A stretch of 64,000 nucleotides of DNA, taken from assembly GCA_013368315.1 (NCBI GenBank), contig JAACJM010000036.1:1-64000 (forward strand), read 5' to 3'. The notes under the pieces were generated by a model. The model had not been told where the DNA came from, did not search any database, and saw only the letters and a list, made by a program, of their open reading frames with translations. A program made the position numbers and the translations under genes. Positions 6,103 to 25,213 of this stretch are shown here, one piece after another. The stretch comes from Tetrapyrgos nigripes. Taxonomy: Eukaryota; Basidiomycota; Agaricomycetes; Agaricales; Campanellaceae. The first letter of the stretch is position 1. Each line of letters starts with the position of its first letter.

Positions 6103-9100
6103 TCAATTATAAAACTGAAGCCCTAATTGTTTCCTGAACTTTTCAAACTTTACTCGATCGAGAGCTTTAGTGAGTAGGTCTGCAGGGTTATTACTTCCTT
6201 CAATGAAGAATAACTTGACTGTCTTGTCGATGACTTTTTCTCGAACAAAATGATATCGAATATCAATGTGCTTGGTATGCTTATCCGTGACAGGGTTTGA
6301 TGCAATAAAAATTGATCCCTGATTGTCACTGTAAATTGGAATAGCGTGGAGAGGATATTCAATTTCACTAAGAAGAGTCTTGAACCAGCATACTTGTCGA
6401 CTGCAGTCACTAAGTGCCATGTATTCAGCTTCAGTCAAAGATAGGGCAACTGTCTTTTGTTGTCTAGATGTCCAGCTAAATGGTGCTTGGGCTAATTGTA
6501 GAAAGAAGCCAGTTTGAGATTTGCGAGATCCAGGATCTGATCCCCAATCGGAGTCTGTATAGGCTGATAAGCCTTCTCCCCCTCTACTGTTGTACACAAG
6601 AGCATATTTTCTAGTGCCAACGAGGTAACAGCAAATGTCTTTCGCCTTATTGTAGTGTTCTTGTGAGGGGTTTGCAGCAAATTGTGCAAGTTTTGTGACA
6701 GCAAAGGATATATCAGGACGTGTTCCTAACATTAAGTAGAGTAAGGATCCGATTATCTCCTGATAACTTTGACGAAGAGTATAATTGACAGGAGCGTCTT
6801 CTGGAAGAGGAAGAGGGTGATAATTGGCGGGTAATGGAGTAGCAGAAGCTTTCGTGTTTTGCATTCCATATGTTTCTAGGATTTTATCCAGATAAGCGCA
6901 CTGGTCTAAAGAGACCTTGCTGCCTTTCCTGGTAATTCTCATCCTAAGGAATTCTTTGGCATCGCCTAGATCCCTACATTCCCATCTCTTCATAAAGTTT
7001 CCTTTGAGTCGTAAAACTAAGGTTTTGTTAGCTCCACAGAATAGAGTGTCATCCACATAGACTACGGCAATAACAATAGAATTTTCAATAAGATTATTGT
7101 TAGCGTTATAGTGTTTGTGAATGAAGATTCCGGCGTCGGAAATGATTCATTTAAAACCAAGTTCCGCCATGGACTTATCAAGACTTTTCCACCACGCAAG
7201 TCCTGCTTGTTTGAGTCCGTAAAGAGCACGAAGAAGCCGGACGACTTTATGCTCTTGTCCTTTGATTTTAAAGGCTTCTGGTTGTTCCATATAGATTTCT
7301 TCATCGAGTAAGCCATATAAGTAGGCTGATCAGACATCGACACCAGACACGTGCCAGCCCTTAAGTGCAGCTAAAGCGAAGATTAAGCGCACAGTCTCGA
7401 ATCAGACAACAGGCGAATATATTTGATCAAAGTCTATGCCTTCAATCTGTGAAAAACCTTTTGCAACGAGTCTTGCCTTTTTACGACCATCAGACTTGAT
7501 GTTGAAGACCCATCGGTTTTTGATAACTTTCCTATCTGTAGGTCTTTCGACCAATTCATAGGTGTCGCGCTTGTGAAGAGCCTCTAGTTCTTTGCGGCAA
7601 GCTCAGCTATAGGTAAGCGAGCAATATCTTTGAATGTCCATTCGCGAATATTACGAACATTCGGTTGATTCCCATCATTCTGAATAAGCAAGTGGGAATC
7701 AATTTCTCCAGGAGCAATTGCCTGCATAAGCAAGAAATTTATAGATACTCCCCCTTCCCGGCATGGTTCTGCCATTTCTTCTGATTCAGGACGTGCAGAG
7801 TCATCACTCTCGGCTTGCTGCTCCCCCTGGGGTGCGCTTCCGGATGCAGAACTAGGTCCGGGAACCTGTTGCTCTGCAGCTTGTTGACGTCGGTTCTCTC
7901 TCCGAGCGTCTCTCTCTGCTTTAGCTTTTGCTTCCGCTCTTTTATCAGTTGCGATTTGAGGTTCAAGATCGCGTGTAACTTGTATGGGGTGTTTATCTCC
8001 GTACCGTTTGTTTGGTTCACTAACACGCTCGCTTCGACGTGTTGGTTCTCCGTAATTCCGTCTTGGTCTAGTGACTTTTCGAGGTGCCGCAGGAGGTGGT
8101 GTCTCCCTTGGAGGTGGCATTATAGGCCTTCTAGGTTCTAAGTCACTATCCGGGGATGAAGGCGGTGGATCCTGTTCAGGTTTGTCGTCACAAAGCTGAT
8201 CAGGTCTCCTTATGGAAGGGATGCGAGAAGGACAATGATTAAAATCTTCATCATCATCGTCAGGGCTTGGTTGTGGTAGAGGAGTGTCATCACTTTGCGA
8301 TGACTCAATAGGAAGTTGTTTTGAGCCACGAGATTGAGTTTTACATCGAGGAAAGAAGTCTTCCTCAAACACGGCTTGCGGGGATGTAAATTCCGCATTG
8401 TTTGTACGCATGAAAAGATTTCCACGTTCTCCCGGTGCTACACCAAGATACATCATGAGTTCTGACTTGGAAGCGAGTTTGTTCTTTCGAGTTTCCTCAG
8501 GTTTAAAGACATAAGCTCCACAGCCAAAGACTCGCAAATGATCGATACGTGGTTTTTCCTTTTCAAGCATTTCAAATGGAGGTATCCATTTGTGTCGTCG
8601 TAAGGGAGTACGTCGATAGACATACAATCCATGACAGACAGCATATTCCCACCAAGATTCAGGTAGACACACTAGCTTCATCATTGTCAGTGCCTTATCC
8701 ATTAGAGTGCGTATAAAGCGCTCTGCTCAACCATTCTGTTGATGAAGGATTCTAATACCCTTATCGAGTAACATTTCTCGGTAGGTACCTTTGATGAATT
8801 CACCACCCATATCCGACATCCACTGTTCGACTTTCGTCTTATATTGAGTTTCTACCATCGCAAGGAACTGGCGAGTGGCAGTCAGTGGTTGTTTCTTGTC
8901 TTTAAGAAGTCGTATCCAAGCATCTGAAGTGTAATCATCAAAGAAGACGATTATATACTTGTACTTGTGGTAGGATATCGTGGGGAATTCCTTCAAATCC
9001 GTATGGATAATTTGGAAAGGACAAGTAGCACGTTGTTCATTGGGAGTTTTGCCTTCAAGACATCCTTTGCGCAAAGGAAGCTCCTTTGGAATGATGAATT

Positions 9101-9122
9101 CAGGAGTGCCAAGGGTGTGTTG
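6103..9122 (-). pseudogene. Copia pol: integrase, reverse transcriptase, RNase H with TGA codons
   Basis: Minus-strand order: integrase pieces at 8727-9074 (core D in FFDDYTSD, DMGGEF, end at HQQNG) and 7584-8702 (integrase C-terminus, then an acidic Pro/Ser linker). RT follows (KNRWVFNIKSDGRKKARLVAKGF, then YVDDTLFCG just before 7056). RNase H is at 6103-7056 (YTDSDWGSD, TEAEYMALSDC, SDNQGS, KHIDIRYHF). In-frame TGA codons lie at 9123-9125, 8727-8729, 7402-7404, 7330-7332 and 7147-7149. At least four stand where relatives have arginine, for example HQQNG-stop-AERF. A single-base frameshift near 7600 separates linker and RT. Confidence 0.9.
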
Positions 9123-10955
9123 TCAGACATGTTTTAGAACATCACGAGAGGGATGTCCTATACGACGATGTAAGATCTCGTAGTTGATAAGATAAATCAA
9201 AAGATTGGCTTTAGAAGCGACAATTTTCGACTTGTGTGGAAGATAGTATAGCGTTTCTTCCGGTATACGCTTTGAGAAAGTCAAGAATGTTGTATTTCTC
9301 GAGATGGTGATATGATCGGAGTTACTGCGCATAAACATGTTGTCATTTAAGAATTGACCGACAGATAAGAGTCGTTGATTTAGATCGGGAATGTAATAGA
9401 CCAGATATAATTTCATAACTCTTTTACGTTGAGAGATCAGGACTGTTCCGGATGCACGAATATTCGTGAAACCATTGGCAGTTTTCACTGGAATTGGTTT
9501 TATATAACTCAATTCAACAAAGTCATTAATGTCGAACGTAAAATGCGCTGATGCTCCAGAGTCAAGTAACCATCCATCACCGAAGTGGATTTTGACAGTG
9601 TTAGATCTCTTCTTCTTACACTTCTGGCATAATGAAAACAAGGTGCCACAGGCACATAAATATATTTTGTTGCTGCCAGGGCTAGTGTACAGTTCATTAT
9701 AAATAAAAGGGGTTGTAGAACCCAGAGGAGCGGTATGTAATAAATATATACATGAAGAACCTGCTTCCATATTACGAGCTGCTGGAAAAAGCACATCAGT
9801 ACTTTTATTCATAAGATCTGAAGTGAGATCTGACCTGAGATAACCGTTGTCCATGCCAGACACCTCAGAGTCTAGGGACCAACCATAATTATTTGCGGCA
9901 TTGACAGTAACCATGGCGGGGGTAGAAGGTCGTGGACTTGGAAGTCTGTCTGACCAGGTTACCTCTACGGGTGATGTAGGGAGGCTCATCCTGCTGAGCG
10001 ATGGCGGAGTCAACATATACTCGAGGTCGCTGGTGTCGGATAGGCTCGGAGACATGCTCCGGAGTTCTGGCATTGAACTCAGAGTCGGGACTCTGGATGG
10101 TATTTCCTCCGCCATTTCCATTCCTCCTAGTCCGATTGTTGCGTCTCTTTGCCAATCGAGCAGCTCGTTGTACCTTCCATCCTCGTTTTTGAGATGAGGA
10201 GTTAGCCATTCCCATCCTGTTGAAGTCCTTCCAGGTGTTGGGCTTACAGCACGACTGGAGGGTAAGGACTGAGTGGTCATGCCACTGGGATGTGCAGGCA
10301 GTGAGCCACTTGGCATCTCGTTGCGGAATGCAGCAAGGCGTTGGACCAGTGAAAGAGTGCCCGTTGATGCACCGGTGTTCACTACTGCTCGGAATGGAGT
10401 TGCTATCTCCCCAAGGATGTGAAGAGGGTCCTCGGGATTCTGGAATCTCTCCCCAAGGTGAATTCCGCACTCCAGTATATCGGCAGCAGGATCCGAGGCA
10501 AGTCGGTCGATAAGTGGAACAGGGGTCCTGGTGTCCTGCGATACCTTTACACCTGACTCCGTCGTTGTGGAGCCAAACACACTTCCGAGTTCCGAAGTGT
10601 TCACCAGAGTGTCCTCGTTCCAACTGGCATCTTCTTCCTGAGCACATTCCATATCGGCATCTGAACCAGTCTGAGTTCCGATGGAACGAGTAAAGGCATC
10701 ATTCCAGTTGTCATTACATCCCCAACCATCAGAGGATGATTGGAGATTATTCCAATAGATGCGTTCTGTGAGAGTGCATTTGGGACGAGGAGCGGGGGTA
10801 AGGGGAGTGAAAGAGGAAAGATCAGGGTGAGACATGATGACATCCTCAAGAGTAGCAACAGTCTCACCAGATGGTCTTGCGCCAATATCGCGTGCAAGAT
10901 TGATAGCTCTTTTGGTACCTGTGAAAAAGGCATCAAAAGGCTTTTCCATTTCCAT
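9123..10955 (-). CDS. Copia gag-pol linker and protease
   Basis: A 610-codon open frame follows gag and ends at the integrase-proximal TGA (9123). Its first 430 residues are Ser/Thr/Pro-rich with no recognised domain. A Cys cluster (CACGTLFSLCQKCKKKR) precedes the aspartic protease site WLLDSGASAHFT near 9545-9580, and the integrase zinc region begins at its end (LHRRIGHPS). The frame is not continuous with gag, so expression would need frameshifting or the junction is mutated. Across about 250 codons a second frame is also open and encodes the Cys/His module (9889-10662). Confidence 0.75.
   Translation of the reverse strand: MEMEKPFDAFFTGTKRAINLARDIGARPSGETVATLEDVIMSHPDLSSFTPLTPAPRPKCTLTERIYWNNLQSSSDGWGCNDNWNDAFTRSIGTQTGSDADMECAQEEDASWNEDTLVNTSELGSVFGSTTTESGVKVSQDTRTPVPLIDRLASDPAADILECGIHLGERFQNPEDPLHILGEIATPFRAVVNTGASTGTLSLVQRLAAFRNEMPSGSLPAHPSGMTTQSLPSSRAVSPTPGRTSTGWEWLTPHLKNEDGRYNELLDWQRDATIGLGGMEMAEEIPSRVPTLSSMPELRSMSPSLSDTSDLEYMLTPPSLSRMSLPTSPVEVTWSDRLPSPRPSTPAMVTVNAANNYGWSLDSEVSGMDNGYLRSDLTSDLMNKSTDVLFPAARNMEAGSSCIYLLHTAPLGSTTPFIYNELYTSPGSNKIYLCACGTLFSLCQKCKKKRSNTVKIHFGDGWLLDSGASAHFTFDINDFVELSYIKPIPVKTANGFTNIRASGTVLISQRKRVMKLYLVYYIPDLNQRLLSVGQFLNDNMFMRSNSDHITISRNTTFLTFSKRIPEETLYYLPHKSKIVASKANLLIYLINYEILHRRIGHPSRDVLKHV
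9889..10662 (-). CDS. Alternative-frame ORF with Cys/His module inside copia
   Basis: Fully overlapping the gag-pol linker, this frame is open for about 270 codons down to a stop at 9889. Residues read from 10662 to about 10519 match the ORF3 module of gypsy A and C position by position: RCRYG, then C-x9-C-x5-H-x3-H-x5-C-x9-C-x5-H-x3-C, CVW, AGH and TYR. The only early ATG (10647) falls five residues inside the module, so normal initiation would clip its start. The part after the module is basic (arginine-rich near its middle) with no known domain. Either it is reached by frameshifting from gag, or it is a captured relic. Homology of the module is clear; expression is unproven. Confidence 0.55.
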   Translation of the reverse strand, partial: RCRYGMCSGRRCQLERGHSGEHFGTRKCVWLHNDGVRCKGIAGHQDPCSTYRPTCLGSCCRYTGVRNSPWGEIPESRGPSSHPWGDSNSIPSSSEHRCINGHSFTGPTPCCIPQRDAKWLTACTSQWHDHSVLTLQSCCKPNTWKDFNRMGMANSSSQKRGWKVQRAARLAKRRNNRTRRNGNGGGNTIQSPDSEFNARTPEHVSEPIRHQRPRVYVDSAIAQQDEPPYITRRGNLVRQTSKSTTFYPRHGYCQCRK

Positions 10956-10984
10956 GTGAAGTATGGCTTACGGGAATCAACTGC

Positions 10985-11970
10985 AGCGGGCATGTCGACG
11001 ACGGTGACTGTGTGCATCATGAGAGACATATCACCATGAACGAGATGTGCTTGGCCCTGTCTCTTGGCCTGTTCATTCTTCCCAGCTTGACCTCCTCGAC
11101 GGAAATGAGCTTTTCTCTTGCCCTTTCCTTTGCCCTTTCCCTTGTTATCTCCGTTAGAGCCACTGGCTCTGTTAGCGCCGCTGCTGCTGCCACTAGGGCG
11201 CTGCTGCTGCTGCTGCTGTTGGAAACTAGGATTACTGTCCTTTCGCTTGACAGCAGAAAGATGGTTGGCATGTGCTTTCCCCTTGAAAGCTCCTTGGCGA
11301 GATTCCCAGATATTGACAATCTCGCTTTGCAGTTCATCAAGATTTTGATTGTCGATTTGAGAGATGGAACATTGAGTATATTGATTGATAAGATACTCAT
11401 ATCTGGGAGGGAGTTTCGATATGATGAACATGACGATGAGGAAATTGGTGACTTTCATAATGGAGGTTTTTGTGGAGTCATCAGCAGAGATACCGGTGGC
11501 ACTAACCCTATTGAAGTGCATGCGAATAAGCTCGACTGCAGCACTAGGATTAGCGTCGTTAGGAATGATGATGGAAGTAGCACGTTTAAAGTCGGTGTAG
11601 ACTGCGGAAACTCCAGGTTTCCCGTAGGTCTTCTTGAGGGTAGTCCAAATTTCTTGGCACTAGTCAAACCAAGTACCTTCTGACGAATGGGAGGAGAAAG
11701 ACGAAGTTTGATAGACCCAATGGCCTTATTGTTCTTCTCGTCCCAGTCGGCCTGTTTCTTTAGAGCCGCCGTGATAGCCTCAGCTTGAGCCGCTGTATCT
11801 TCAGCAGATAGAGGAGAGACGGTACTCACTTCAGCATCACTAGGGCGATCAGAACCAAGGACTGAACTAAGTCCAGTGGCCTGGAGCCAGGAAAGAAGAA
11901 TGTCAGCCCAGATGTTGAAATCAACACCAGCAAAGACAGGTACAGTGGTCATCAAAACGTTGGAAGACAT
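10985..11970 (-). pseudogene. Copia gag, frameshifted
   Basis: The start at 11970 (MSSNVLMTTVPVFAG) reads a typical copia-type N-terminus (VDFNIWADILLSWLQATG) to about 11690. It then loses frame and continues in the frame of 10601-11521 (PPRYEYLINQYTQ, a glutamine run of seven, then a Gly/Lys-rich basic tail). A one-base change near 11660-11690 explains the break. The usual CCHC zinc knuckle is not seen in gag, which makes the nearby Cys/His module notable as a possible replacement (inference). Confidence 0.8.
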
Positions 11971-13159: not shown

Positions 13160-13218
13160 TTTGGTGACAAATCTCAGATCTGTGCAGCAATGCCCTGAGT
13201 TAGCTGATACTGATGAAC

Positions 13219-13840
13219 TGTTAAGTCCAGGCAGATCCTAGCGTTAGGAAACACGTCAGACCCGAGCGGAAGTCTTATTGGGGTTTTTGGGAAAGGATAA
13301 AGATGAATCCGGGCGGAACCGGTAGTCTCTGAGATCGAAGTATAAGGAAGACATGGAATGGAATCTGTTAGGACAGTACTATGTTGTCTGAAGTCAGATG
13401 AAGTTAGGAGACCAGCTAATTCGATTTTAGACTTAAGCTATCTACTACAAAGTTGCTAGCTTAAGTACTACTTTGGAAACTATCTGAATGAAGAGGAGTA
13501 AGATAGGGATGGTTCAGAAATAAAGGAAAAGCACATGGTGCTATTGGAGATGGATGGAGTACTGCGGAACAAAGTGGAAACAAAGTGGAACGGATTGGAG
13601 ATGAAGTGGAGTAAGTTTGGAGATTAGATACGAGCTATCCAGTAGTTATCCAAAATGAATCACGGGTTCCCGGATGGGATCCGTTTGTGGAGATTAATAG
13701 TGGAGCTCGGATATGAAATCGGAAATGAATGATTGGAAAGTGTTCAGGATGGAAGGGAATAAAGTTCGAAATAAAAGAAAGAGAAGTTCGGAAAACAATC
13801 GGATGCGGTCAGAAAGATGTACAGAGGCATAGATCTTACA
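13219..13840 (-). repeat. 3' LTR of gypsy family B
   Basis: Runs tgttaagtccaggc ... agatcttaca on the plus strand (TG...CA ends, 622 bp). The first 410 bases match 19008-19420 closely. The polypurine tract (plus strand gtatccccctcttagg) lies at 13841-13856. Confidence 0.88.
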
Positions 13841-14057
13841 GTATCCCCCTCTTAGGCCTCGAGCCCTCGAGAGGCATGGAAACGAATAGTAATCAGTCAG
13901 GATGAAGTTGAAAAGACAATAGAAGAAAAAGGAAAATGAACAATGGAATCGGAAACGAATGGAAATGATCGGAATTGTGAATGGTTTCTAAATTAAGTAA
14001 TTGGTAACAAAATGAACGGGAAACAATAAGGATGGTCCGTGCGTGAATTTGAAAATG

Positions 14058-14065
14058 TATAAAAG
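14058..14065 (+). promoter_or_regulatory. TATA box of the antisense gene in element B
   Basis: TATAAAAG lies 46 bases upstream of the ATG at 14111, outside the LTR and pointing opposite to gag-pol. The spacing suits a Pol II core promoter with a short leader. Confidence 0.55.
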
Positions 14066-14110
14066 GGAGAAGTCCTTGGAAGCAGGGCAAAACCAACTTC
14101 ACCGTTATCG

Positions 14111-15129
14111 ATGTCTTCCACCACCTCCTACGTTCCCCTTGACGTCTCCATGCTCCTGACGGAGTATACGACCGAATGGACACCATCCAATGCGAAACCT
14201 CCGGCTCCTGTGCAACCCGAACCTTTGGTGGAGAAAATGATCGATGATAGTATGAGGGTGACGGAAAAGCATCGGGTCCGTCAGGAAAATAAAAATGGTG
14301 TGTGATCTTTTTTGAATTGGGTTTTCCACAGATGCTAACGGAATCGGCTTTAGCTCGACAAGCACATGAAGCTCTGATGGAGGAATACGAGGCTGCGCAG
14401 GAGTTGATGGAGTTGTGGTTGGAGCAGCGGAAAGACACGGAAAAGGCGAAGAAGGAGGAATTGGAGGCTGAGGAGAGGAAACAGCTGGAGGAATGGGCAA
14501 GGAAGGAGAAGGAACAGACGGAATGGGGTCCAGAGGTGGAAATGGAGCATTCCGATGCGGGCCCGTCGGAGAAGGCGAGAGGAAAGAGAAAAGCGAATTC
14601 TGGGCTGAGTAGTCCTCATGCAGCTCGGAAGCGACGTAGGGACGAGGGATCTGGAGATGATGACTCGGAAAGCGAGGAAGAGGTTGAGGTGGAGAAGGGA
14701 GAAGCGTATGCTGAGGTACGTGGTTTTTCCGTTTTTCTACCTTCGGATTGTGACCTTAATTTTCTGTAGCGGTGTTCCCAGTGTACCTGGCTCAGTTTGG
14801 AGTGCACGTCCCAAGGTGGCGGGAAACGTGCTTGCGAGCCCTGCGTGGCATCACGTGTGGGGTGTAGCTTCACCGGTCAGAAGGCCATCATTCCCGACGT
14901 CTCGACCCTTTGTGCCATACAGTTGGCCCAACTTCGTCGCCTCATCCATATGGGGAATGTTCTAGAAGCGATCGCGGAAGCGTCAGATATCCCACTTCCC
15001 AAATTGGAGGATGAGAAGTGGACGGGAATGGAGGCAAGGTTGCTGGACATGCCGGATTCGCTCAGAAAGCCTAAGAAGAAGGGAAAGGGGAAGAAACCAA
15101 GATCAAAGGCAGTGGTAGAGGAAGATTGA
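14111..15129 (+). CDS. Antisense accessory gene of element B: coiled-coil protein with Zn2Cys6-like cluster
   Basis: Three exons are proposed: 14111-14297, 14354-14715 and 14770-15129, joining to 302 codons. Intron 1 (56 nt) starts GTGTGT and has a CTAAC branch site before TTTAG; intron 2 (54 nt) is GTACGT...TGTAG. Both keep the frame. The middle exon is a long Glu/Lys/Arg-rich helix, probably a coiled coil, then basic (KRKA, KRRRDE) and acidic patches. The third exon begins with a cluster spaced C-x2-C-x6-C-x9-C-x2-C-x6-C, fitting the fungal Zn(II)2Cys6 pattern, although the usual basic residues between the second and third Cys are absent (TWLSLE). It ends in a Lys-rich tail (KKKGKGKKPRSK), likely nuclear. 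It lies antisense to pol inside the retrotransposon. Function unknown. Confidence 0.72.
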
Positions 15130-15355
15130 AGAAAGGGACGGATGCGCGCCAGACGCGATGGACACAAACAATTGTATATAGATTTTTTGTAATGGATACT
15201 CGACTGGACCCGGATGGGCAAAAAACTTTCTTGGAACAAATTTTTGAGTGAAGTTAAGATGTGATCGGAGTAAAAGGAAAAAATGAGAAAAAATAGAATA
15301 AATCGAAATTAGTGAAGAGCGCTGGAAGAGACGGAAAACATCGGAAAGATGAGGA

Positions 15356-17509
15356 TTAAGATGAAATTGGAAGAGGACCGGGTTTGTTCAGATTTTTCTG
15401 ATGGTACTCGTCTATAGCTTCTTTGGCTGTAAGCTCATCCATGGGAAGCCAGGAAAATTCTTCGTCAGTGCCTTCGTAACCAGACCACTGTACCAAATAT
15501 AGTAGAGGACATTTCCGACAGCGCCAATCGATTTTCGAGTCTAAGATTTCAGTGATTTCATATTCAAGTTCACCTTCAATCTCAACCAGAGCGGGCGGAT
15601 CTGGAATACAATTCGGAATCGTGTTGGGAACAGCGGGTTCGAGTTGGGACACATGGAAAACTGGATGGATACCACGGAGATAGTCAGGGAGCTTTATGGC
15701 ATAGGAAAGAGAGCTGGGGCGAGAGATAACTTTGAATGGGATGACCAAGGATCGGGGCGGAAGTAAAAGCGTGCTTAAGGTAATCGAAAGATTCCTGGCA
15801 TGCCTGTGTCCATTTCCACTGGATAGCTTTTTGGGTGAGACAGGTTAGGGGTATGACGATATCCGAATAATTGAAGATGAAGCGTCTGTAAAAATTACAG
15901 AAGCCTAGGAAGGATTGTATATCCCGGACCTTCTGAGGAACAGGCCATTCTAGGATAGTTCGGATTTTAGAAGGATCCATTGTTAACCCTTCAGGGGAGA
16001 GAATGTAGCCTAGATACTCCACGGTATCAACGGAAAAGAAGCATTTTTCGGGGTTAACAAAGAGCCCGTGTTCTCGGAGCCGACGGAATACTTCACGAAC
16101 ATGCTTCTGATGATCCTCCTCATTGTCGGAATAGATCAGGACGTCGTCGAGATAGACGATGATGGTAACGTCGAGGAGATCCTTGAGGATGTCGTTGATA
16201 AATCGCTGAAAAGCGGCGGGAGCATTACTGAGACCAAAAGGCATCACTTTCCATTCGAAGGATCTGTAGCGGGTCCGGAAAGCAGTTTTCCATTCATCCC
16301 CTTCGGCGATATGGACCAAGTGGTAAGCGTGATGGAGAACCAACTTGGTATAGATTTTCGCGCGCCGGGGGGTGTCTAAAAGCTCGGAAATAAGTGGAAG
16401 CAGATACCTATCCTTCTTCGTGATGGCATTGAGGCCACGGAAGTCAACGCAAAGCTGAAGCTCTCCGCTTTTCTTCTTCACAAAGAGGACTGGAGCCATG
16501 AAGGGCGAGGATGAAGGTTTGATAAAACCTATAGTCAGATGTTTGTCGATAAATTTCCGTAATTCTCCTAATTCCCTGTCGGATACCGGATAAATCCGGG
16601 CAATCGGCAGAGCTGCACCCTTGACAAGATCAATCTTGAGGTCGTAGGGACGATGCGGAGCCAGTTTATCTGAAAGTCCTTCATCAAACACATCAGAATA
16701 GTCAGCTAAGTATTTGGGAGCCTTTGGAGAAGGTGGGGTTCCCGAATTTGAGGCTTTCGCATGAACCTCAGCATCCAGGGTTAACTGGAGCACCATTGGT
16801 TCGAGCTGATCCTGTTTGCAACAGCAAATGAAAGCTGCTGCTCCGATGATGCTAATGCGGGTGTCGTCAACGGAAGACGCCATTTGCGAGATGGAAGGAT
16901 AGGAATAGATGGGTTCGTACAGCCATGATGATTTAGAACGAATTGGTGGCGTTGAAGCCGGAAGTGGTGTGGAAACCGGAGAACCCGGGTCAGCCTCAGA
17001 GGGCGACACACAGGGTTCAGAGCTCGGGGTAACAGCAACCAGTTTGGGGTCACGGAATTCGATGTTTCCTTTTACCCAGTCAACCGATGGGTTGTAGTGG
17101 GAAAGGAAACTATATCTGAGGACTCCCTTACAAGTTGAGTCGAGATTAGTGACATAAAAGTCAAGAGGAATTTGTTCCCCCTTCGGAAAGTAAACGGAAA
17201 AATGGCATACTTTATTCAGGGTGCAGGGTACGGAACCATCAAGTAAGCGTAGACAAACGGGAGGAATGGAGAAGGTAGGTAGGGAATGTTCAGAAACGTA
17301 CGTAGAGTCGATAAAACAATCTGAAGAACCAGAATCCAAAAGCGACGGAAAAGAAATGGAAAGTTTGTGTTTAGTATATGAAGGAATAGAAAGTGGAAGG
17401 ACTAAGGATTTAATGGAAAGAGCAGCGGCGTTGAGAGTAACCTCCTGATTGGCACGATCCCAGTCAACGCAACTCTGACCTCGTGCTGAGGCATCAGAGT
17501 CGCTGACTA
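15356..17509 (-). pseudogene. Gypsy B pol with RNase H/integrase deletion
   Basis: Read from 17509 downward after a -1 shift from gag. The protease (LLDSGSSDCFIDS) lies near 17335. RT carries KKKSGELQLCVDFRGLN and the catalytic YLDD site (IIVYLDDVLIYS), and the PEKC and FLGFCNFYRRFI motifs follow. The frame then runs into a deletion: at about 15735-15750 the RT-RNase H boundary (FTSAPILGHP) is fused to the integrase tail (FKVISRPSSLSYAIKLPDYLRGIHPVFHVSQLEP), which continues in another frame to a chromodomain (YEITEILDSKIDWRC ... YLVQWSGYEG) ending at 15356. RNase H and the integrase zinc and DDE regions are absent, so this copy could move only with help. Confidence 0.9.
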
Positions 17510-17516
17510 TTTTGGG
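17507..17516 (-). promoter_or_regulatory. Candidate -1 ribosomal frameshift site at the gag-pol junction of B
   Basis: Gag codons read TCC CCA AAA TAG. The heptamer C-CCA-AAA (17510-17516) has the X-XXY-YYZ form and sits directly before the gag stop (17507-17509). Slipping back one base gives CCC AAA ATA GTC, which enters the pol frame. That frame is open from here through the protease to 15684. Confidence 0.6.
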
Positions 17517-18988
17517 GACTGCGTGGAAGCAGTGCCAGTTGCGGAAGTACTACCGGAGAAGGTGCTTTCCGTGTTCACAGCTCGGCTGCGAGCCTCGTTC
17601 ACTGCCTTCTGCTTGTTACAGTCATCCGTCGAATGCTTCCCGCCACAGAACATACAGAGATTGTTCTTTTTGTGGCGGTCCCTTTCGTCCTGGGATAGCT
17701 TTCCGTCTTTCCCGAGCTTGTTGGCCCAGGGTTTCTTCTGGCTGGAAGGGAACGAAGACGATGAGGATGAGTTAGAGTTGGGATTGTAGTTGGAATTGGA
17801 GGAATTTCCGGATTTCCCACCTTTACCAGAGTTTGAGGACTTTCCAGAACCGGAACTGGAACTATTACCTCCCAAGCCTTTCCCCCCGGAATTCCCTTTT
17901 CCCCCGCTCGCTTCTTCCCGTTTCTTCTCAGTTTGGCAACGCCAGTAACGGGAATCGATTCGGAGAACCTGGGATTTGAGATGGGGAAGGTTCTGTTCCT
18001 CGTAGACTAGGGCAAGAGCGTCCTTGATTCGCAGAGCCAAACCCTTTCAGAAAAAGTGTCGCAAGGAATTCTCATCCCAAGCGACCTGCGAAGCAAGTTG
18101 TTGGAACTTGACGCAGTATTTCGTGGCCTGATCGGAATCCTTTATGAATAGGGCCTCCAATCAGTCCTCAGCATCCCCAACCTTGTCGAAAACCCCGAAG
18201 TTGTCCTTCAGCTCCTTGACGAAAATACCAAAGTCAAGGGTCCACGGAGCGGGTTCCTCGGGATCCGGGTTGAGGATTTCCGGCTCAAAGAATTCAAGCG
18301 CGGTGCTGGAGAGATAGGAAAGAGTGAAACTGATTTTTGCGGCATCAGTCATGTATGCCTTGGGACAGTTCTGGAGATTGATCTGGATCTGGATCAGGAA
18401 CGGACAGAGCTTCTTCAGATCCAACCTATCAAAAACGTCGGGTTTCTTCACTTCCGTCTTTTCACTGTGACCAGGTGTAACCTTTCCGATGATCTCGTTG
18501 AAACTTTGGAGGGCGGTAATGAACTGCCTCCTTTCGTTATCATCGTTGTCGGAATCATCAGAACCATCTTCTCCTCCACCACCCTGGTATTGTTCATTGT
18601 TGTCCTTGTCATTTCCCTGACCATACTGCTGGCCTGGTGGAGGACCTCGGCCGTCATCGGGATTGGCGGTTGTACGCGAGGGTCCTGCTCGAGAGGATCC
18701 TTGAGTTTGCTGTTGGACGTATGAATGGCTTTGGGTTTGTGTAAGGGTTGCGGAGTCTCCTGGCTCCAGGCCGTCCCAGCTATCGAGGAATTCCTTGAAC
18801 GGACTCGTGTGGGGTTTGGTTGGGCTCAGATGTGCGAAAATGCTGCCAGAGCGTCTGTGTTGGCAAATTTGAATGTTACAGAAGAGGTTGGAATAATAAG
18901 CGTTTTTGAATGGAGTTACCAGAACCGTAAGGTTCGGTGTCAGGAAAGGAGTTTGTGGTTGAGAACGTTGGGACATTGTAGACAACAA
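17507..18988 (-). pseudogene. Gypsy B gag with two TGA codons
   Basis: One frame runs from 18988 to the stop at 17507, interrupted only by TGA at 18161-18163 and 18047-18049. The N-terminal part is disordered and Gln/Ser/Gly-rich. The capsid-like region includes KKPDVFDRLDLKKLCPFL and DFGIFVKELKDNFG. The C-terminus has a Ser/Gly/Asn-rich linker and a CCHC zinc knuckle (CMFCGGKHSTDDC). Both stops are TGA, consistent with CGA arginine codons changed by C-to-T mutation. Confidence 0.88.
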
Positions 18989-19007
18989 GAGTGGAAGTCT
19001 AAAATAC

Positions 19008-19420
19008 TGTTAAGTCCGGGCGGATCCTAGCATTAGGAAACACGTCGGACTCGAGCGGAAGTCTTATTGGGGTTTTTGGGAAAGGATAAAGATGAATCTG
19101 GGTGGAACCAGTAGTCTCTGAGATCGAAGTATAAGGAAGACATGGAATGGAATCCGTTAGGACGGTACTATGTCGTCTGAAGTCGGATGAAGTTAGGAGA
19201 CCAGCTAATTTGATTTTAGACTTAAGCTATCTACTACAAAGTTGCTAGCTTAAGTACTACTTTGGAAACTATCGGAATGAAGAGGAGTAAGATAGGGATG
19301 GTTCGGAAATAAAGGAAAAGCACATGGTGCTATTGGAGATGGATGGAGTACTGCAGAACAAAGTGGAAACAAAGTGGAACAGATTGGAGATAAAGTGGAG
19401 TAAGTTTGGAGATTAGATAC
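19008..19420 (-). repeat. Truncated 5' LTR of gypsy B
   Basis: Matches 13219-13632 with few differences, then stops abruptly at gattagatac where an oppositely oriented LTR of the same family begins. Confidence 0.85.
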
Positions 19421-20399
19421 TGTAAGATCTATGCACTTTCCTGTACTTTCCTATGGCTTTACGGTACCCTTTTACTTTCCTGTACTTTCCTATGACTTTC
19501 TGGTACAGTCTTACTTTCCAGTTTTTTCCTATGACTTTCCGGTACAGTCTTAGTTTCCATTACTTTCCTATCGCTTTCCGATCTTTTCCCTTTTCCTTAT
19601 TCACACATTCATTTCCGATTTCATATCCGAGCTCCACTATTAATCTCCACAACGGATCCCATCCGGGAACCCGTGATTCATTTCGGATAACTACCGGACA
19701 ACTCGTATCTAATCTCCAAACCTACTCCACTTTGTTTCCACTTCGTTCCGCAGTACTCCATCCATCTCCAATAGCACCATGTGCTTTTCCTTCATTTCCG
19801 ATCCTTTCCTATCTAATTCCTATGCTGTCATGAATCGCTCTCCACCTATGCTCTCCGCCTATTCATTTCCTTTCTATTCTTTTTTCCCTTTACTATCTAC
19901 TTCCCACTCTAACCCCATAAACATCAGATCTATGACTCACATTCTTATCTCCTCCGTTTCCTTTATCTCCATGGACATTCCCACAAATATGCTTCTCTAC
20001 TTGACTCATACTCTTATCTCCTCCGATCCCTTTAACTCCATGGACATTCTCACATATTCACTTCTCTCTTATATATATATCGTAGATCTCGTAGCTAGGT
20101 TCCTCAGTCTGTTCACTTCGTTTCCACTCCGCTCCTAGTACAGGGCAGTGTCGAGCATAGTCAGCTACTCGATCCCTTCTCATCTCTATCATTCTTCCTC
20201 TATCTCTTCTCATTATAACTTGCTGAATCTATCTTGCTCATTGTGTGACTTGGGTGGTTTGCTAAGTGACAATGTTCTTGACATATGCTCTCCGAAGTAG
20301 TACTTAAGCTAGAAAGTTTGTAGTAGATAGCTTAAGTGCAAAATCGACAAAGCTGGTCTCCTATCCTTCCTCAATGGTTTCCTAGAGTTTCCCAGTCTT
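19421..20399 (+). repeat. Inverted LTR of gypsy family B, interrupted
   Basis: Starts tgtaagatctatgc, the exact LTR start of family B, in plus orientation. It continues with sequence complementary to the truncated LTR next door. The U3 part contains four diverged copies of an actttcctatgactttccggtacag-type unit (19433-19590), absent from 13219-13840, so it is a different subfamily. It is split at 19826-20283 by a solo LTR of family A. The right end, near 20399, merges into the end of element C, where the boundary is unclear. Confidence 0.75.
19826..20283 (+). repeat. Solo LTR of gypsy family A with target duplication
   Basis: TGTCATGAATCG ... ATGTTCTTGACA, 458 bp, flanked by tatgc on both sides (19821-19825 and 20284-20288). 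It was left by LTR-LTR recombination after insertion into the family B LTR. Confidence 0.92.
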
Positions 20400-20417: not shown

Positions 20418-20933
20418 TTAGGACGAGCTTTCACCGGAGCTCGACAATCCAGTCTTCCAATGCTCCGCCCATTGCTTGCGGAGTCGTCTGTCTACATCCC
20501 CTTGGCTCGGCCAATATTTGTCCCAATCTATGGTGTAGTTTCCAATCTCCCATCTAGGGTCGTTCCAGTCTAAGTTCCCCCACTCCGTTGTGTTGGTAGC
20601 CATTCCCCATCCCCCTCCATTGTCATCCATGTTCCATTGTACAACGTTGTCTGCCCCCCATATGCTGGCGTCTCCCCATCCTAGATTCCCTCTATGTTCC
20701 GCACGTAGCGACGTCCATTGTACCACACAACGGGCTTTATGTCCTCTGCCCAATCTGCACCGTCCTGGTCCATCTTCTCCTCCCCACGTGCAGTGTTGAC
20801 ACCCGTTGTGAGGTCCTGTGTGTTGTTTCGCCATTCGGCATCGACGTCTGGAACGGGTTCCATAGGTGCAACGTCCCCTATTGGTTGGGAGCGCGTCGTT
20901 CACGTTGGTGTTGGTGGAGGAAGTGGTTGACAT
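20418..20933 (-). CDS. Gypsy C ORF3: Cys/His double zinc module with Trp-rich tail
   Basis: A 171-residue protein. The ATG at 20933 (MSTTSSTN) is preferred over the upstream in-frame ATG at 21008 because gypsy A starts with the same MST. The module spans 20727-20873: RCTYG, then C-x9-C-x5-H-x3-H-x5-C-x10-C-x5-H-x3-C, with HCTW and GRGH in the middle. This can be read as a CCHH site followed by a CCHC site. The rest has more than ten tryptophans in acidic Gly/Asn-rich sequence (WGNLDWNDPRWE) and ends in a basic helix (RRLRKQWAEHW). It sits after pol, where some elements carry env-like or accessory genes, but no signal peptide or membrane segment is visible. Role unknown; nucleic-acid binding is a guess from the module. 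Confidence 0.72.
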   Translation of the reverse strand: MSTTSSTNTNVNDALPTNRGRCTYGTRSRRRCRMAKQHTGPHNGCQHCTWGGEDGPGRCRLGRGHKARCVVQWTSLRAEHRGNLGWGDASIWGADNVVQWNMDDNGGGWGMATNTTEWGNLDWNDPRWEIGNYTIDWDKYWPSQGDVDRRLRKQWAEHWKTGLSSSGESSS

Positions 20934-21107
20934 GGCTATGATGAAGGTGTAGTATGAGGGGAGTAAGGTGAAACTGGTAGGATGTGGTTGAGTTCTGTCC
21001 TTCTTCATTGTGGAGAGGGGGGTCTTTTATACTTGTCTGTCTGTATGGAGAGAATTTTGAATGGACGGTCAAGTTATCCCCGAAGATGGTTTTGACAGTA
21101 GACGCCA

Positions 21108-24100
21108 TTAACGAGGGAATGCGATCGATGAGTGATGACAGAAATCTGAGTTCGATTGCTGAGTGGGGTGTGAAGGCGGGCATAGAATACCCACGGTTCG
21201 TAACAGTGTTTCTCCTCGGAGTTCTGCTTTCGCTTGAAGCACACGGGTACTTCGCCATATGTCTTCCATGGCGATTCCTAATGAACGTACCGTTGTTCCC
21301 GGGCGTATCAGGTTCTTGGGTCGATATGCATCTGGATGTTGTCGATGGAAGGTCTCAATCATCTCCTTCACCTTTGTCAATCCTGACGCTGGTTCCCATG
21401 AATTTTCCGAATCAGCATAATCCAACCATTTGACAAGGTATTGTACTCCCCGTCGGTTTCTCGTTGGTTTTGAATCTAAAATTGCTTCTACATCATATTC
21501 GTTGTCTTCGGGTAGCAGCTCAGCAGGTTCTCCCGGATAGTTCACTCCGTGGGCTTCGGTCTCTTTGTACGGCAATAGGAGTGAGGCGTGGAACACTGGG
21601 TGAATGCACCAGCCATTCGGTAATTTGAGTCGATAATTGACTTCACTGATAATGTCAGTGATTTCGAATGGTCCGTGACGACGATTTGCCAACTTAGCTT
21701 TCGGTCTCGTCGTTTTCAGATTCTTCCCATCCAGCAACACTTTATCCCCAACCTTAAACTTCACCCCTTCGTTCCTGTAGTCCTTGTTTTGCTCTTTCAT
21801 CAGTTCAGCTGCCGTCGCCAGACTTGCTCTTAGTTCTTCTCGAACTGCATCCAAGTTCTGGAGGCGTTCTTCGACTTTTGGTACGTGTGAAGCTGGATTG
21901 ATAGAAGGGAATAGCCGGGGTAAAAATCCATGGAGTAATTCAAACGGCGATTTCCCAGTTGCTGAGTGAATTCGAGTATTATGACAGAATTCGGCGTACG
22001 GCAGGTATTTGACCCAATCGTCTTGACGATAGTTACAGAAGGTTCGAAGGTATTGTTCCAATTCTTGATTGAACCTCTCTGTTTCGCCGTCTGTCTGCGG
22101 ATGATAAGCTGTACTGAGTGCCGAAGTGATACCTAACTTAGCGTAAATGCCTTTCATTACTTGGCTTGCGAATTGAGGTCCTCGGTCGGATATCATTTTA
22201 TCCCATAAGCCATACCGCCGCCAAGTGTTGTCGAACAATAAGTCGATAGTTCTGTTGCTATCAATATCTTTTCTGCATGGGGAAATGACAACTGTTTTTG
22301 TTGAACGGTCGACTGTGACGTGAATTGCATTGAAGCCGTCACATTCTGGCAGGTCCGTGATGAAGTCAGTTGTAATGGTACCAAAGGGTCGTTCCGGTAT
22401 TTCGTTCGGGATTAAGGGTACATGCGCAGGATGGTTGTTTGCCTTGGTTAACTGGCAGGTAGCGCATCCTTCAACGTAGCTGCAGACGAATACTGACATA
22501 CCAGGCCACCAGAATTCTCTACTGACGAGTTCGTATGTTTTGAATCGTCCCGGGTGACCTGCAGTAAGGCTGTCGTGGTGCATTTTAACGATGTCCCGTC
22601 TGAGTTGTTGATTGTTAGGGACGTAGATCTTCCCTCGGAACAAGATAATTCCGTCTTTGTAGTTCCATTCCTGTAAATTCTTTGCCAAAGCGCGTGGTCC
22701 GTTGTCAAAGATAGTTTGTAACGCACTCACGACTTCAGCATCCTTATCTGGACACTCCTTAATCCGCCTTTTCAACTCCGCATCTCCTATTGTGGTTACT
22801 GTTCCTGGTCGTGTCGCTCAAATTCTGAAGAATCTAGGGTCAAGCAAGACCCTGTCCTTGTTGTCGTTTTCGACCCCCTCTTTATGGTCCGATCTCCAAG
22901 AAAGTGGGTCACTTCGATTCAGATTTCCAGGTTTATGGGTGAGCGTAAAGTCGAATCTGGTCAGGAACAAGGCCATCCTTGCTTGCCGTCGGCTGAGTTT
23001 CTGAGCCGTGGTGAAGTATCTAAGGTTGTCGTGATCGGTCAAGATTTCGATGGTGTGCGGCCCTCCTTCCAGGTAGTGCCGCCAGGCTTCCAGTCCGCAT
23101 ATGATCGCTAGTAGTTCTTTGTCATGAATGTCGTAATTCCGTTCGGTTTCGGATAACGCCTTTGACAGGTAGGCTACTGGGTGCCATTTGCCGTCCGATC
23201 CTTGTTGTTGCAGGATACCTCCTGTGGCGTAATCTGACGCGTCAACTTCTACTCGGTACGGTTTAGAATGATCAGGCATTAGAAGAACTGGTGAAGTCGT
23301 GAACATATCTTTGAGTGCATGGAAGGCCCTTTGAGCTTCCTCGGACCATTCCCATGGATGTTCCTTTTTCGTGAGATCGAACAGTGGTCGTGCGATTTTT
23401 GAGAAATCTCGTATGAAACGACGATAAAAGTTCCCGAAGCCGAGGAATGACTGTACGTCTTTGACGTTCCGTGGGACTGGCCATTTAGTTACGCCTTCGA
23501 CCTTGACTGGATCCATCGCCAATGTGTTGTGTGACACGATGAGGCCGAGGAATTCTACTGAGTCGGTTTCGAAGGTGCATTTTTCCGGTTTAGCGTATAA
23601 GTCGTTATCATGGAGTCATGCCAGTACTTGTTTTACCATGTATCGATGTTCTTCTAGTGATTCCGTGAATATGAGAATATCGTCCATATAGATTACGACT
23701 TTTCCAGAGTCGATCAGGTCCTTGAATAGAGTGTTCATCATCGCTTGGAATGTGGCTGGAGAGTTCATAAGACCGAAAAACATCACCGTTGGTTCGAAGA
23801 GACCGCGGTTGGTTTTGAACGCCGCTTTCCATTCATCTCCCTTCTTGATACGTATGTTGTTATATCCCCATCTAAGGTCGATTTTGGAAAATATTCGTGC
23901 CCCTTTGAGTTTGTCTACAAGTTCCGATATAAGCGGTAAAGGGTATTCGTTCTTGACGGTCCCTTTATTTAGGGCATGGTAATCCTGTACTGGTCGTAGT
24001 TTTCTGTCTTTCTTTTTTACAAAGAAGAAGAGACTCGCCATAGGAGACTTCGACGGTCTTATGTACCCTTTCTCCAAGTTTTCCTTGATGAATTCATCAA

Positions 24101-25213
24101 GCTCCTTTTGTTCATTTGGGGACAACGGATATGTTTTGCAAGGGCGTGGTTCAAAGTCCGATTTTAACTCGATAGCGTGATCCCATTCGCCACGTTTCGG
24201 TAATCGTTCTGAGGTTTGTTTGTCAAAGACTCGTAGGAACTGATGATACTGCGAAGGAATCTTATCTTTAAGAGGTACATCGACCTGAACGCTCTGAGCT
24301 GCCTCTGCGAGTTCTTGTGCTTTCGTAAAACCTGCACGGATGTTCAGATCTGGTGTCCCTGACGCTTCTTCATCAAATCTCTCCTCTTTCCCTAACAATT
24401 CTTCCATTACGTCCTGTTCCCATCGTTCTGGGATCGTATCTCTCCCGTAGTCATCTTCGGTAAAGATTGCCGTTCCTTCTGAATTTCGGTGGAAGGATCG
24501 GACAGGAATTCGACGACGTCGCCCTGCAATTTTCGATTGGGCAATTGGTTTGAATCGTCCAACTGGTTCTATCCACCTGACTTGGTACTCCTTGTGGTGG
24601 GTTCTTGGATCGATGACTGTGGGTTTCAAGGCTCTAGTTTTCAAGTGGAGAACGGGAGGTTTTGCTGTGATACATGTTTCTGGGCATCTAGTCATGTCTA
24701 CCCGTGAGTCTGACCAGTCTATATCTGGATTATGTTCTTCCAACCAGTCGGTACCAAGGATTATATCGTGATCCCCAATGTCCGTTACATAGAATTCGGC
24801 CCGTTCTTCATGGTACGCCTTGTTGTCTCGAGAATAGATATGAAGATTTTGGATAGTGTATTCCCGTATCCATCCCATGGTGTTTTCAGAGCCGTCAACG
24901 TTTCGAACTGGGAACGGGTTTTTGATAGGAAGGAGGGTAAGTTGATTTCTTTGTGCGAATTGACTGTTAATGATTATGCCTTCTGCACCGCTGTCTATTA
25001 AAGCGTTTGCGTCAATTTTTCTGCCAGTAATTTTGCCGATTAGTTCAGTTTTGAGTGTGATTGATGGTATCTGTTTATTGCGAGTGATTGCTGACATTCT
25101 TATTTCTGAAGGAAAGGTTCGCTCACAAGAGGGGTATAACACACTATATCGATTGTTCTTTAACTGTCCAGTGTACTGTTTTACTCCTACTGACGACGTA
25201 GCAGAGGAGTGAT
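21108..25213 (-). pseudogene. Gypsy C pol: protease, RT, RNase H, integrase, chromodomain; two TGA codons
   Basis: Domain order from 25213: protease (NALIDSGAEGIIIN), RT (VKKKDRKLRPVQDYHALN, catalytic YMDD at about 23680), then a TGA at 23616-23618. RNase H follows ([33 protein letters not shown]), then a second TGA at 22818-22820. Integrase carries the zinc site (GHPGRFKTYELV, GCATCQ) and core (DFITDLPECDGFNA, STAYHPQTDGETERF), and the C-terminal chromodomain reads YDVEAILDSKPTR ... QYLVKWLDYADSENSW. All parts share one frame. At the second TGA, gypsy A has CGA (arginine), so a single C-to-T change made the stop. Apart from these two codons the polyprotein looks complete. Confidence 0.93.

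What the first reader, a model, noticed from the sequence alone, without database searches (positions are those of the whole stretch)
14111..15129. Intron-containing antisense gene with a Zn2Cys6-like cluster carried inside gypsy element B
Between pol and the 3' LTR, opposite to gag-pol, lies a gene with its own TATA box (14058), two clean introns and an unbroken 302-codon reading. Meanwhile gag of the same element carries stops and pol is deleted. A gene with introns antisense to a retrotransposon keeps its introns through genomic-RNA retrotransposition, because the element's transcript does not splice them. The product pairs a coiled coil with C-x2-C-x6-C-x9-C-x2-C-x6-C and basic patches. 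It could be a captured regulator acting on the element or host.
Basis: partly seen in the sequence, partly recalled or inferred. Interest (0 to 1): 0.9.

Follow-up and report, generated by a model that had tools for sequence, protein, structure and literature searches.

The report
Spliced antisense gene in fungal retrotransposons
A mobile element in this fungus carries a real, intron-containing gene written backwards next to its tail; the gene is kept by selection across dozens of copies and comes in several interchangeable versions, so it probably makes a nuclear control protein for the element.

Summary
The window lies in a 98-Mb, probably basidiomycete genome. The gene at 14111-15129 (3 exons, 302 aa) is not unique to element B: 40 matches (39 besides the window, 83-94%) were scored, and in 20 of 20 copies fetched with flanks it sits antisense beside the 3' LTR. 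TATA box, start codon and all four splice sites survive in 37-39 of 40 copies. Coding constraint follows the exons (pN/pS 0.26-0.31; introns 0.47-0.93; neutral simulation 0.70). Four types (24-46% identical) share six invariant cysteines; 61 of 66 close integrase relatives carry the gene, 0 of 11 distant ones. New: types F3 and F4 have matching integrase and LTRs but different antisense genes, so the gene was probably swapped as a cassette; F2 and F3 each lack one intron cleanly, hinting that spliced antisense RNA was reverse-transcribed. Antisense accessory genes are known in Retand/Grande, HTLV and Botrytis Boty, so this is a new variant of a known kind. Function is inferred; no transcript was tested; Pfam's Zn2Cys6 cut-off is not met.

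The parts
13217..13840 (-). 3' LTR of gypsy element B (element reads on the - strand)
   Evidence: 95.7% match over 415 nt to 19006-19420; LTR pairs and TG..CA ends in other copies. Inner end 13840 inferred from where the hits start.
13842..13851 (-). polypurine tract beside the 3' LTR (by eye)
   Evidence: read directly; the stretch from 13846 on matches in all 14 F2-F4 upstream loci aligned
14058..14065 (+). TATAAAAG box of the antisense gene, 53 nt before the ATG
   Evidence: kept in 38 of 40 copies; TATAAA 51-63 nt before a start found in 8 of 18 diverged loci by strict pattern
14111..14297 (+). exon 1
   Evidence: pN/pS 0.31 in frame
14298..14353 (+). intron 1 (GT..AG; branch-like GCTAAC by eye)
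   Evidence: absent in type F2
14354..14715 (+). exon 2: charged, coiled-coil-like stretch, basic NLS-like stretch, acidic run (all by eye, no predictor run)
   Evidence: pN/pS 0.26 in frame
14716..14769 (+). intron 2 (GT..AG)
   Evidence: absent in type F3
14770..15129 (+). exon 3 with six-cysteine cluster and lysine-rich tail
   Evidence: pN/pS 0.30 in frame; cysteines invariant in eight aligned peptides of four types
14773..14865 (+). C-x2-C-x6-C-x9-C-x2-C-x6-C cluster
   Evidence: each of the six kept in 36-38 of 38 B copies
15370..15690 (-). end of pol: SH3/chromodomain remnant, convergent with the antisense gene
   Evidence: tblastn to the integrase/chromodomain protein of element C; boundary approximate
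15684..17339 (-). reverse transcriptase part of element B pol
   Evidence: PF00078
17510..18991 (-). broken gag of element B
   Evidence: 88% identity to another copy's gag, 2 TGA inside
19006..19420 (-). 5' LTR of element B, incomplete
   Evidence: beyond it lie inverted LTR-like fragments

Best explanation
The gene is a standing accessory gene of one clade of chromodomain Ty3/gypsy elements in this fungus. Its own TATA promoter beside the 3' LTR would make an antisense mRNA convergent with gag-pol; host splicing would remove the introns, giving a charged protein with a six-cysteine (probably zinc-binding) cluster. The genomic RNA is the other strand and reads CT..AC at these introns, so it is not spliced there and new copies keep them. 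Most likely the protein is a trans-acting nuclear regulator of the element's expression, in the manner of HTLV HBZ or Grande GENE23. Shown here by sequence: the gene, its frame and introns, selection, its clade-wide place, deep types, and two types on matching integrase and LTRs. Inferred: transcription, splicing in life, zinc binding, nuclear location, regulatory role. Because F3 and F4 share LTRs and integrase but differ wholly in this gene, the partner that drives its change is more likely a host factor (for example silencing machinery) or another element product than the LTR DNA alone.
For: 40 scored matches in the genome. In 20 of 20 flanked copies the gene is antisense with the LTR on its promoter side; pol parts lie on the other side in 19, the contig ending there in one, L010. 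Splice sites, ATG and TATA kept. NG86 Ka/Ks 0.26 in frame against 0.89 and 1.25 in shifted frames, 38 copies. Exon pN/pS 0.26-0.31 in frame, introns 0.47-0.93 over all six frames. Neutral simulation 0.70, SD 0.17, lowest of 300 runs 0.37; observed 0.28. Selection looks weaker between the closest pairs (0.39) than the farthest (0.25), and N:S is 76:45 in single-copy against 138:130 in shared changes, as expected if selection acts while the lineage moves and fades after insertion. 61 of 66 integrase hits of at least 60% identity have the gene convergent within 3 kb, 0 of 11 of 39-44%. Six cysteines invariant at 26-46% identity to the window. F3/F4: integrase Ks 0.31 against 0.34 within F3, LTR identity 0.79 against 0.83 and 0.80 within, matching flanks on both sides, but antisense exon 3 pS 0.73, near saturation.
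Against: No transcript, protein, zinc-binding or localisation data exist here. Pfam Zn_clus is below cut-off (15.8 of 21 bits). The single-sequence model of exon 3 is poor (pLDDT 50). No homologue in the protein database; no convincing one in Pfam or PDB. Single-copy changes (N:S 1.69) stay somewhat below the neutral N:S of about 2.1-2.6 for plausible mutation biases, so relaxation after insertion is not complete on that measure. The 11 LTR pairs measured are 95.6-98.0% identical, so no sign of present activity in them.
Confidence: 0.55

Rival explanations
1. The antisense RNA itself is the active product: it pairs with genomic RNA or feeds small-RNA silencing and limits copy number; the reading frame matters little.
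For: Convergent antisense transcription over the element's 3' part is expected from the anatomy; dsRNA roles are discussed for antisense accessory genes (PMC7264820, passages read) and Ty1 antisense RNA acts in trans (PMC12786077, passages).
Against: Protein-level constraint is clear: pN/pS 0.28 against 0.70 neutral, frame switching at the introns, six cysteines invariant. An RNA-only role predicts no frame-specific constraint. Both roles could coexist.
Confidence: 0.12
2. The gene is an element-specific repressor giving copy-number control or superinfection immunity, the types being immunity groups.
For: Deep types and apparent exchange between backbones look like immunity-type diversification; self-limitation by an element product is known in Ty1 (recalled, no call).
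Against: A repressor that reads its own LTR should vary with the LTR; F3 and F4 share LTRs yet differ wholly in the gene. A Gag target was not tested.
Confidence: 0.2
3. It is a host gene captured once and now merely carried, or a domesticated host gene family.
For: It has spliceosomal introns and a TATA promoter like a host gene.
Against: 68 of 79 gene loci lie in elements by integrase, gag, RT or LTR evidence; constraint is weaker in the closest comparisons. The intact fraction (15 of 38 full-length copies) needs no selection in place. Old capture as the origin is not excluded, and 11 loci stay unplaced.
Confidence: 0.1
4. Chance open frame opposite a sense gene or in decaying DNA.
For: One reverse-strand frame mirrors the low pN/pS in each exon (0.27, 0.37, 0.32), as expected if its third positions coincide with those of the gene.
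Against: That reverse frame has stops in 38 of 38 copies in exon 1, 5 of 38 in exon 2 and 12 of 38 in exon 3; the spliced forward frame runs throughout in 15 copies.
Confidence: 0.01

Closest known systems
brtn of Boty-like Ty3/gypsy elements (Botrytis cinerea, Sclerotinia)
   Same: Fungal gypsy element with an additional antisense gene; PMC7264820 files Boty among elements whose additional antisense frame lies between pol and the 3' LTR (passages); a Boty copy's gag-pol includes a chromodomain (PMC4227169, passage).
   Different: Ascomycete; Zhao et al. 2011 is not in the library (title seen in reference lists only), so introns, motif and relation could not be compared.
Retand (TRP28, PF04195) and maize Grande gene23 antisense genes of plant gypsy elements
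   [quoted passage not shown] Grande gene23 has its own promoter and a nuclear product (PMC11963269 abstract, passages and discussion; PMC7264820 passages).
   [quoted passage not shown] the word 'intron' has 0 occurrences in the main texts of PMC11963269 and PMC7264820. Here: a short region, a six-cysteine protein, spliceosomal introns, swappable types.
HTLV-1 HBZ
   Same: Antisense retroviral gene under a promoter at the 3' LTR (start of abstract of PMC10186651 in a listing); spliced, basic, nuclear coiled-coil regulator (recalled).
   Different: Retroviral bZIP protein (recalled) with its promoter within the LTR; no sequence relation claimed.
Fungal Zn2Cys6 binuclear cluster proteins (PF00172)
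   Same: Cysteine spacing C-x2-C-x6-C-x9-C-x2-C-x6-C in types B, F2, F3.
   Different: Below the Pfam cut-off in the members scanned; F4 has x14 in the middle; the basic residues typical between cysteines 2 and 3 (recalled) are weak in B; the cluster sits behind a long charged stretch.

Membership tests
Chromodomain Ty3/gypsy element (chromovirus) | gag, RT, RNase H, integrase with H2C2, then chromodomain, between LTRs | tested here: met
   RT by Pfam in the window copy; RNase H and integrase-chromodomain regions by tblastn to element C's proteins in other copies; LTR pairs in 11 copies. The window copy itself lacks most of RNase H and integrase.
[quoted passage not shown]
   20 of 20 flanked copies, pol side cut off in one; 61 of 66 close integrase loci; frame constraint
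Retand TRP28 antisense proteins | PF04195 domain | tested here: not met
   not among the hits at E<=10
Botrytis brtn | sequence homology to BRTN | not testable with these tools
   paper and sequence not found in the library
Fungal Zn2Cys6 (PF00172) | profile score above Pfam gathering cut-off | tested here: not met
   best seen 15.8 against 21 bits, an F2 member; 3 of 8 members hit at all at E<=10, best E 0.015
Fungal Zn2Cys6 (PF00172) | six cysteines with the class spacing | tested here: met
   F4's x14 lies outside the usual 5-12 (range recalled)
Fungal Zn2Cys6 (PF00172) | two zinc ions bound by six cysteines, sequence-specific DNA binding | not testable with these tools
   model pLDDT 50
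HBZ-like regulator (works like) | nuclear protein that changes transcription of the element | not testable with these tools
   no expression or localisation data

The most novel reading that the evidence does not exclude
A clade of fungal chromoviruses carries a spliced antisense zinc-cluster gene that behaves as a swappable type locus: deeply split alleles (24-46% identity) are exchanged whole between elements whose LTRs and integrase match. Clean lack of intron 1 in one type and intron 2 in another records spliced antisense mRNA being copied back into element DNA during reverse transcription. The gene would be the element's fast-evolving counter-defence or incompatibility factor.
Probability: 0.3. 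Interest if true: 0.8.

Novelty: new variant of a known kind. Interest (0 to 1): 0.62.

Why it matters
Antisense accessory genes of LTR elements have been described in plants and Botrytis, but a review calls their function unknown (PMC7264820). Here one genome holds many copies of several diverged types, two natural intron absences and an apparent gene swap between matched backbones: a natural experiment that says the protein, not only the RNA, is under selection and that its partner need not be the LTR. RNA-seq, silencing and binding tests can follow directly.

Tried and rejected
Host gene decaying in place: rejected. Chance frame or mirror of a sense gene: rejected. Repressor matched to its own LTR: weakened, since F3 and F4 LTRs match. 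Simple fast protein evolution as the reason for all type differences: could be enough between B, F2 and the F3/F4 group (integrase Ks about 1.1-1.2), not for F3/F4, whose synonymous sites in the antisense gene are near saturation while the flanks are not. Relatives elsewhere: none in the protein database; in the PDB only Zn2Cys6 protein LEU3 at E 2.8 and prostasins at E 1.3-1.4; none in IMG/VR, but there the integrase found nothing either, so that absence says nothing. The protein database does hold named basidiomycete integrases at 55-66%, but words of five exact residues limit reach for so fast a protein, so absence elsewhere is not shown. The single-sequence fold gave nothing usable and was not searched further. 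Pfam LysM-type hits (2 of 8 members, best E 1.1e-4; 22 of 43 profile positions and below cut-off in the member listed) and EAD11 (E 0.22) were judged chance.

Full report
What is there. The window is part of contig C36 of a 98.46-Mb, 587-contig genome. Short introns and the named database relatives of the element's integrase (Armillaria, Lentinula, Trametes, Cyclocybe, Scleroderma, Pisolithus, 55-66%) point to a basidiomycete; the species was not identified. Element B reads on the - strand: 3' LTR 13217-13840, SH3/chromodomain remnant near 15370-15690, RT 15684-17339, broken gag 17510-18991, partial 5' LTR 19006-19420. On the + strand lies the gene of the finding: TATA at 14058, exons 14111-14297, 14354-14715, 14770-15129, 302 aa.

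It is a family trait. A DNA search with 14050-15200 gave 40 scored matches out of 51 candidates: the window and 39 others at 83-94%, two of them partial. Twenty were fetched with flanks as far as the contigs allowed. All 20 have the gene antisense with an LTR on its promoter side; 19 have pol parts on its other side, and L010 is cut by a contig end there. In 11 of the 20, both LTRs were matched over more than 500 nt; they are 95.6-98.0% identical, with repeats such as GACCC/GACCC and AGAAC/AGAAC beside the ends. So these copies are old. No copy of the 20 shows one pol frame longer than 1165 aa.

It is a coding gene with introns. Of 40 copies, TATA survives in 38, ATG in 37, donor 1 in 39, acceptor 1 in 39, donor 2 in 38, acceptor 2 in 39; 15 are intact throughout. 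The two partial copies were left out of the rate work, leaving 38. NG86 Ka 0.055, Ks 0.215, ratio 0.26; frames shifted by one or two bases give 0.89 and 1.25. Exon by exon in the proposed frame pN/pS is 0.31, 0.26, 0.30; the introns give 0.47-0.93 over all six frames. One reverse frame per exon is also low (0.27, 0.37, 0.32) but carries stops in 38, 5 and 12 of 38 copies. A simulation with the mutation spectrum of introns and flanks gives a neutral value of 0.70 (SD 0.17 per pair, 300 runs, lowest 0.37); observed 0.28. pN/pS falls from 0.39 in the closest 5% of pairs to 0.25 in the farthest 20%. Changes seen in one copy have N:S 76:45, shared ones 138:130; plausible neutral values are about 2.1-2.6. 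That is roughly what selection on a moving lineage followed by decay predicts, so survival of the frame in the window copy needs no function in place.

Types. An exon-3 protein search of the genome gave 90 hits at E<=10 and a second one with a diverged member 50 at E<=1. I merged fragments by hand to 79 loci (13 fragments dropped, 2 loci added). Integrase hits (82 of 1554 candidates scored, 90 rows) were merged to 77 (13 fragments dropped). 61 of 79 gene loci have a convergent integrase on the other strand within 3 kb; 61 of 66 integrase loci of at least 60% identity have the gene, 0 of 11 of 39-44%. Of the other 18 gene loci, 7 show element parts by other evidence: the window itself, C212 (LTR), C6:56900 (gag), C29 and C57 (gag and RT), C62 (LTR and RT), C65:8308 (RT). 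Eleven remain unplaced; three of these have E above 0.01. From the loci whose sequence I took, four types stand out: B, F2, F3, F4. Integrase amino-acid identity is 82-92% within and 79-84% between types; antisense exon 3 is 69-90% within and 24-46% between (pairs sharing under 100 or 60 residues left out). Six cysteines, with spacing x2, x6, x9 (x14 in F4), x2, x6, are invariant in the eight aligned peptides; in a wider set one F3 copy has Tyr for the second.

Divergence or exchange. Between B, F2 and the F3/F4 group, integrase Ks is about 1.1-1.2, so a fast-evolving protein alone could explain those differences: antisense Ka is 0.5-1.0 where integrase Ka is about 0.1. F3 against F4 is different. 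Integrase Ks is 0.31 (14 pairs; within F3 0.34, 21 pairs). LTR regions are 0.79 identical (25 pairs; within F3 0.83, within F4 0.80). Sequence is shared up to about the TATA box and again from about the stop codon towards integrase, 75-91%. Yet antisense exon 3 has pS 0.73 and pN 0.51 (16 pairs), and F4 has intron 2 while F3 does not. Selection on the protein should not saturate synonymous sites; whole-gene exchange between backbones is the simplest reading. A stretch of 62-79 nt in the charged region is still 72-78% alike, so old common origin is likely. Against a clean story: within F3 antisense pS is 0.44 (Ks about 0.67) against integrase Ks 0.34, and in the one F4 pair Ks is 0.44-0.87 against 0.29. 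The gene thus runs about twice as high at synonymous sites even within these types, which I cannot explain fully; the F3/F4 gap is still far larger. F4 integrase sequence in this test is from two loci, and gag was not compared.

Introns. In 4 of 4 F2 loci one frame runs through the place of intron 1, and intron 2 is present; in 7 of 8 F3 loci one frame runs through the place of intron 2 (L055 has a small deletion there), and intron 1 is seen in the four loci shown. B and F4 (31% identical) have both at matching places, though one F4 locus (L062) has a deletion at intron 1. Clean loss is most easily explained by copying of spliced antisense mRNA. Since that mRNA has the polarity of minus-strand cDNA, template switching during plus-strand synthesis is one possible route. 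This is inference; deletion or intron gain is not excluded.

What it may do. The basic and acidic patches and the charged, coiled-coil-like region are by eye. The cysteine cluster has the class spacing of fungal Zn2Cys6 proteins, but Pfam scores stay below cut-off (best seen 15.8 of 21 bits), and a search of the genome with PF00172 found 36 other places at E<=0.01, none at these loci. The exon-3 model has pLDDT 50 and is not used. By analogy with Grande GENE23 (nuclear, own promoter) and HBZ, I take a nuclear regulator as most likely, and by the F3/F4 comparison a target other than the LTR as more likely than the LTR itself.

What is known. [quoted passage not shown] PMC11963269 (abstract, passages, discussion) reports antisense coding regions in all its Retand elements, 97% of clusters with TRP28, and proposes regulation. 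PMC8365987, PMC4227169 and PMC5987419 (passages) mention brtn. PMC2864245 (passages) mentions an additional ORF of unknown function in a figure of its gypsy survey, without orientation in the passages seen. PMC5408684 (passages) reports extra ORFs in rotifer LTR elements expressed from spliced messages. Searches listed no paper, by title or abstract start, on a spliced antisense six-cysteine gene of basidiomycete gypsy elements; some lists were cut at 8-20 rows and the library lacks most subscription journals, so this is not proof of absence.

Noticed in passing
window 19606-20363: LTR-like fragments of the same family in inverted orientation lie between element B and the next gypsy element: a nested or rearranged insertion.
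   Followed up: partly
window 20418-26716: Second chromodomain gypsy element (zinc knuckle, protease, RT, RNase H, integrase, chromodomain) whose integrase is only about 30-39% identical to the B family's; no six-cysteine match in it.
   Followed up: partly
window 1069-2421: Part of a third gypsy element: integrase with chromodomain on the + strand.
   Followed up: no
window about 7584-11970: Copia-like element on the - strand, by a Pol_BBD domain in 9123-10955 (the copia label is recalled).
   Followed up: no
window 38112-39689: 525-aa frame with a sub-threshold leucine-rich repeat match.
   Followed up: no
L053-L060 and L062/L063: Within types F3 and F4 synonymous divergence of the antisense gene is higher than that of integrase, about twice in F3; unexplained.
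   Followed up: partly
G000:C30:471705-471932: A 45%-identical relative of F4 exon 3 found only with the F4 query; context not seen; candidate further type or host copy.
   Followed up: no
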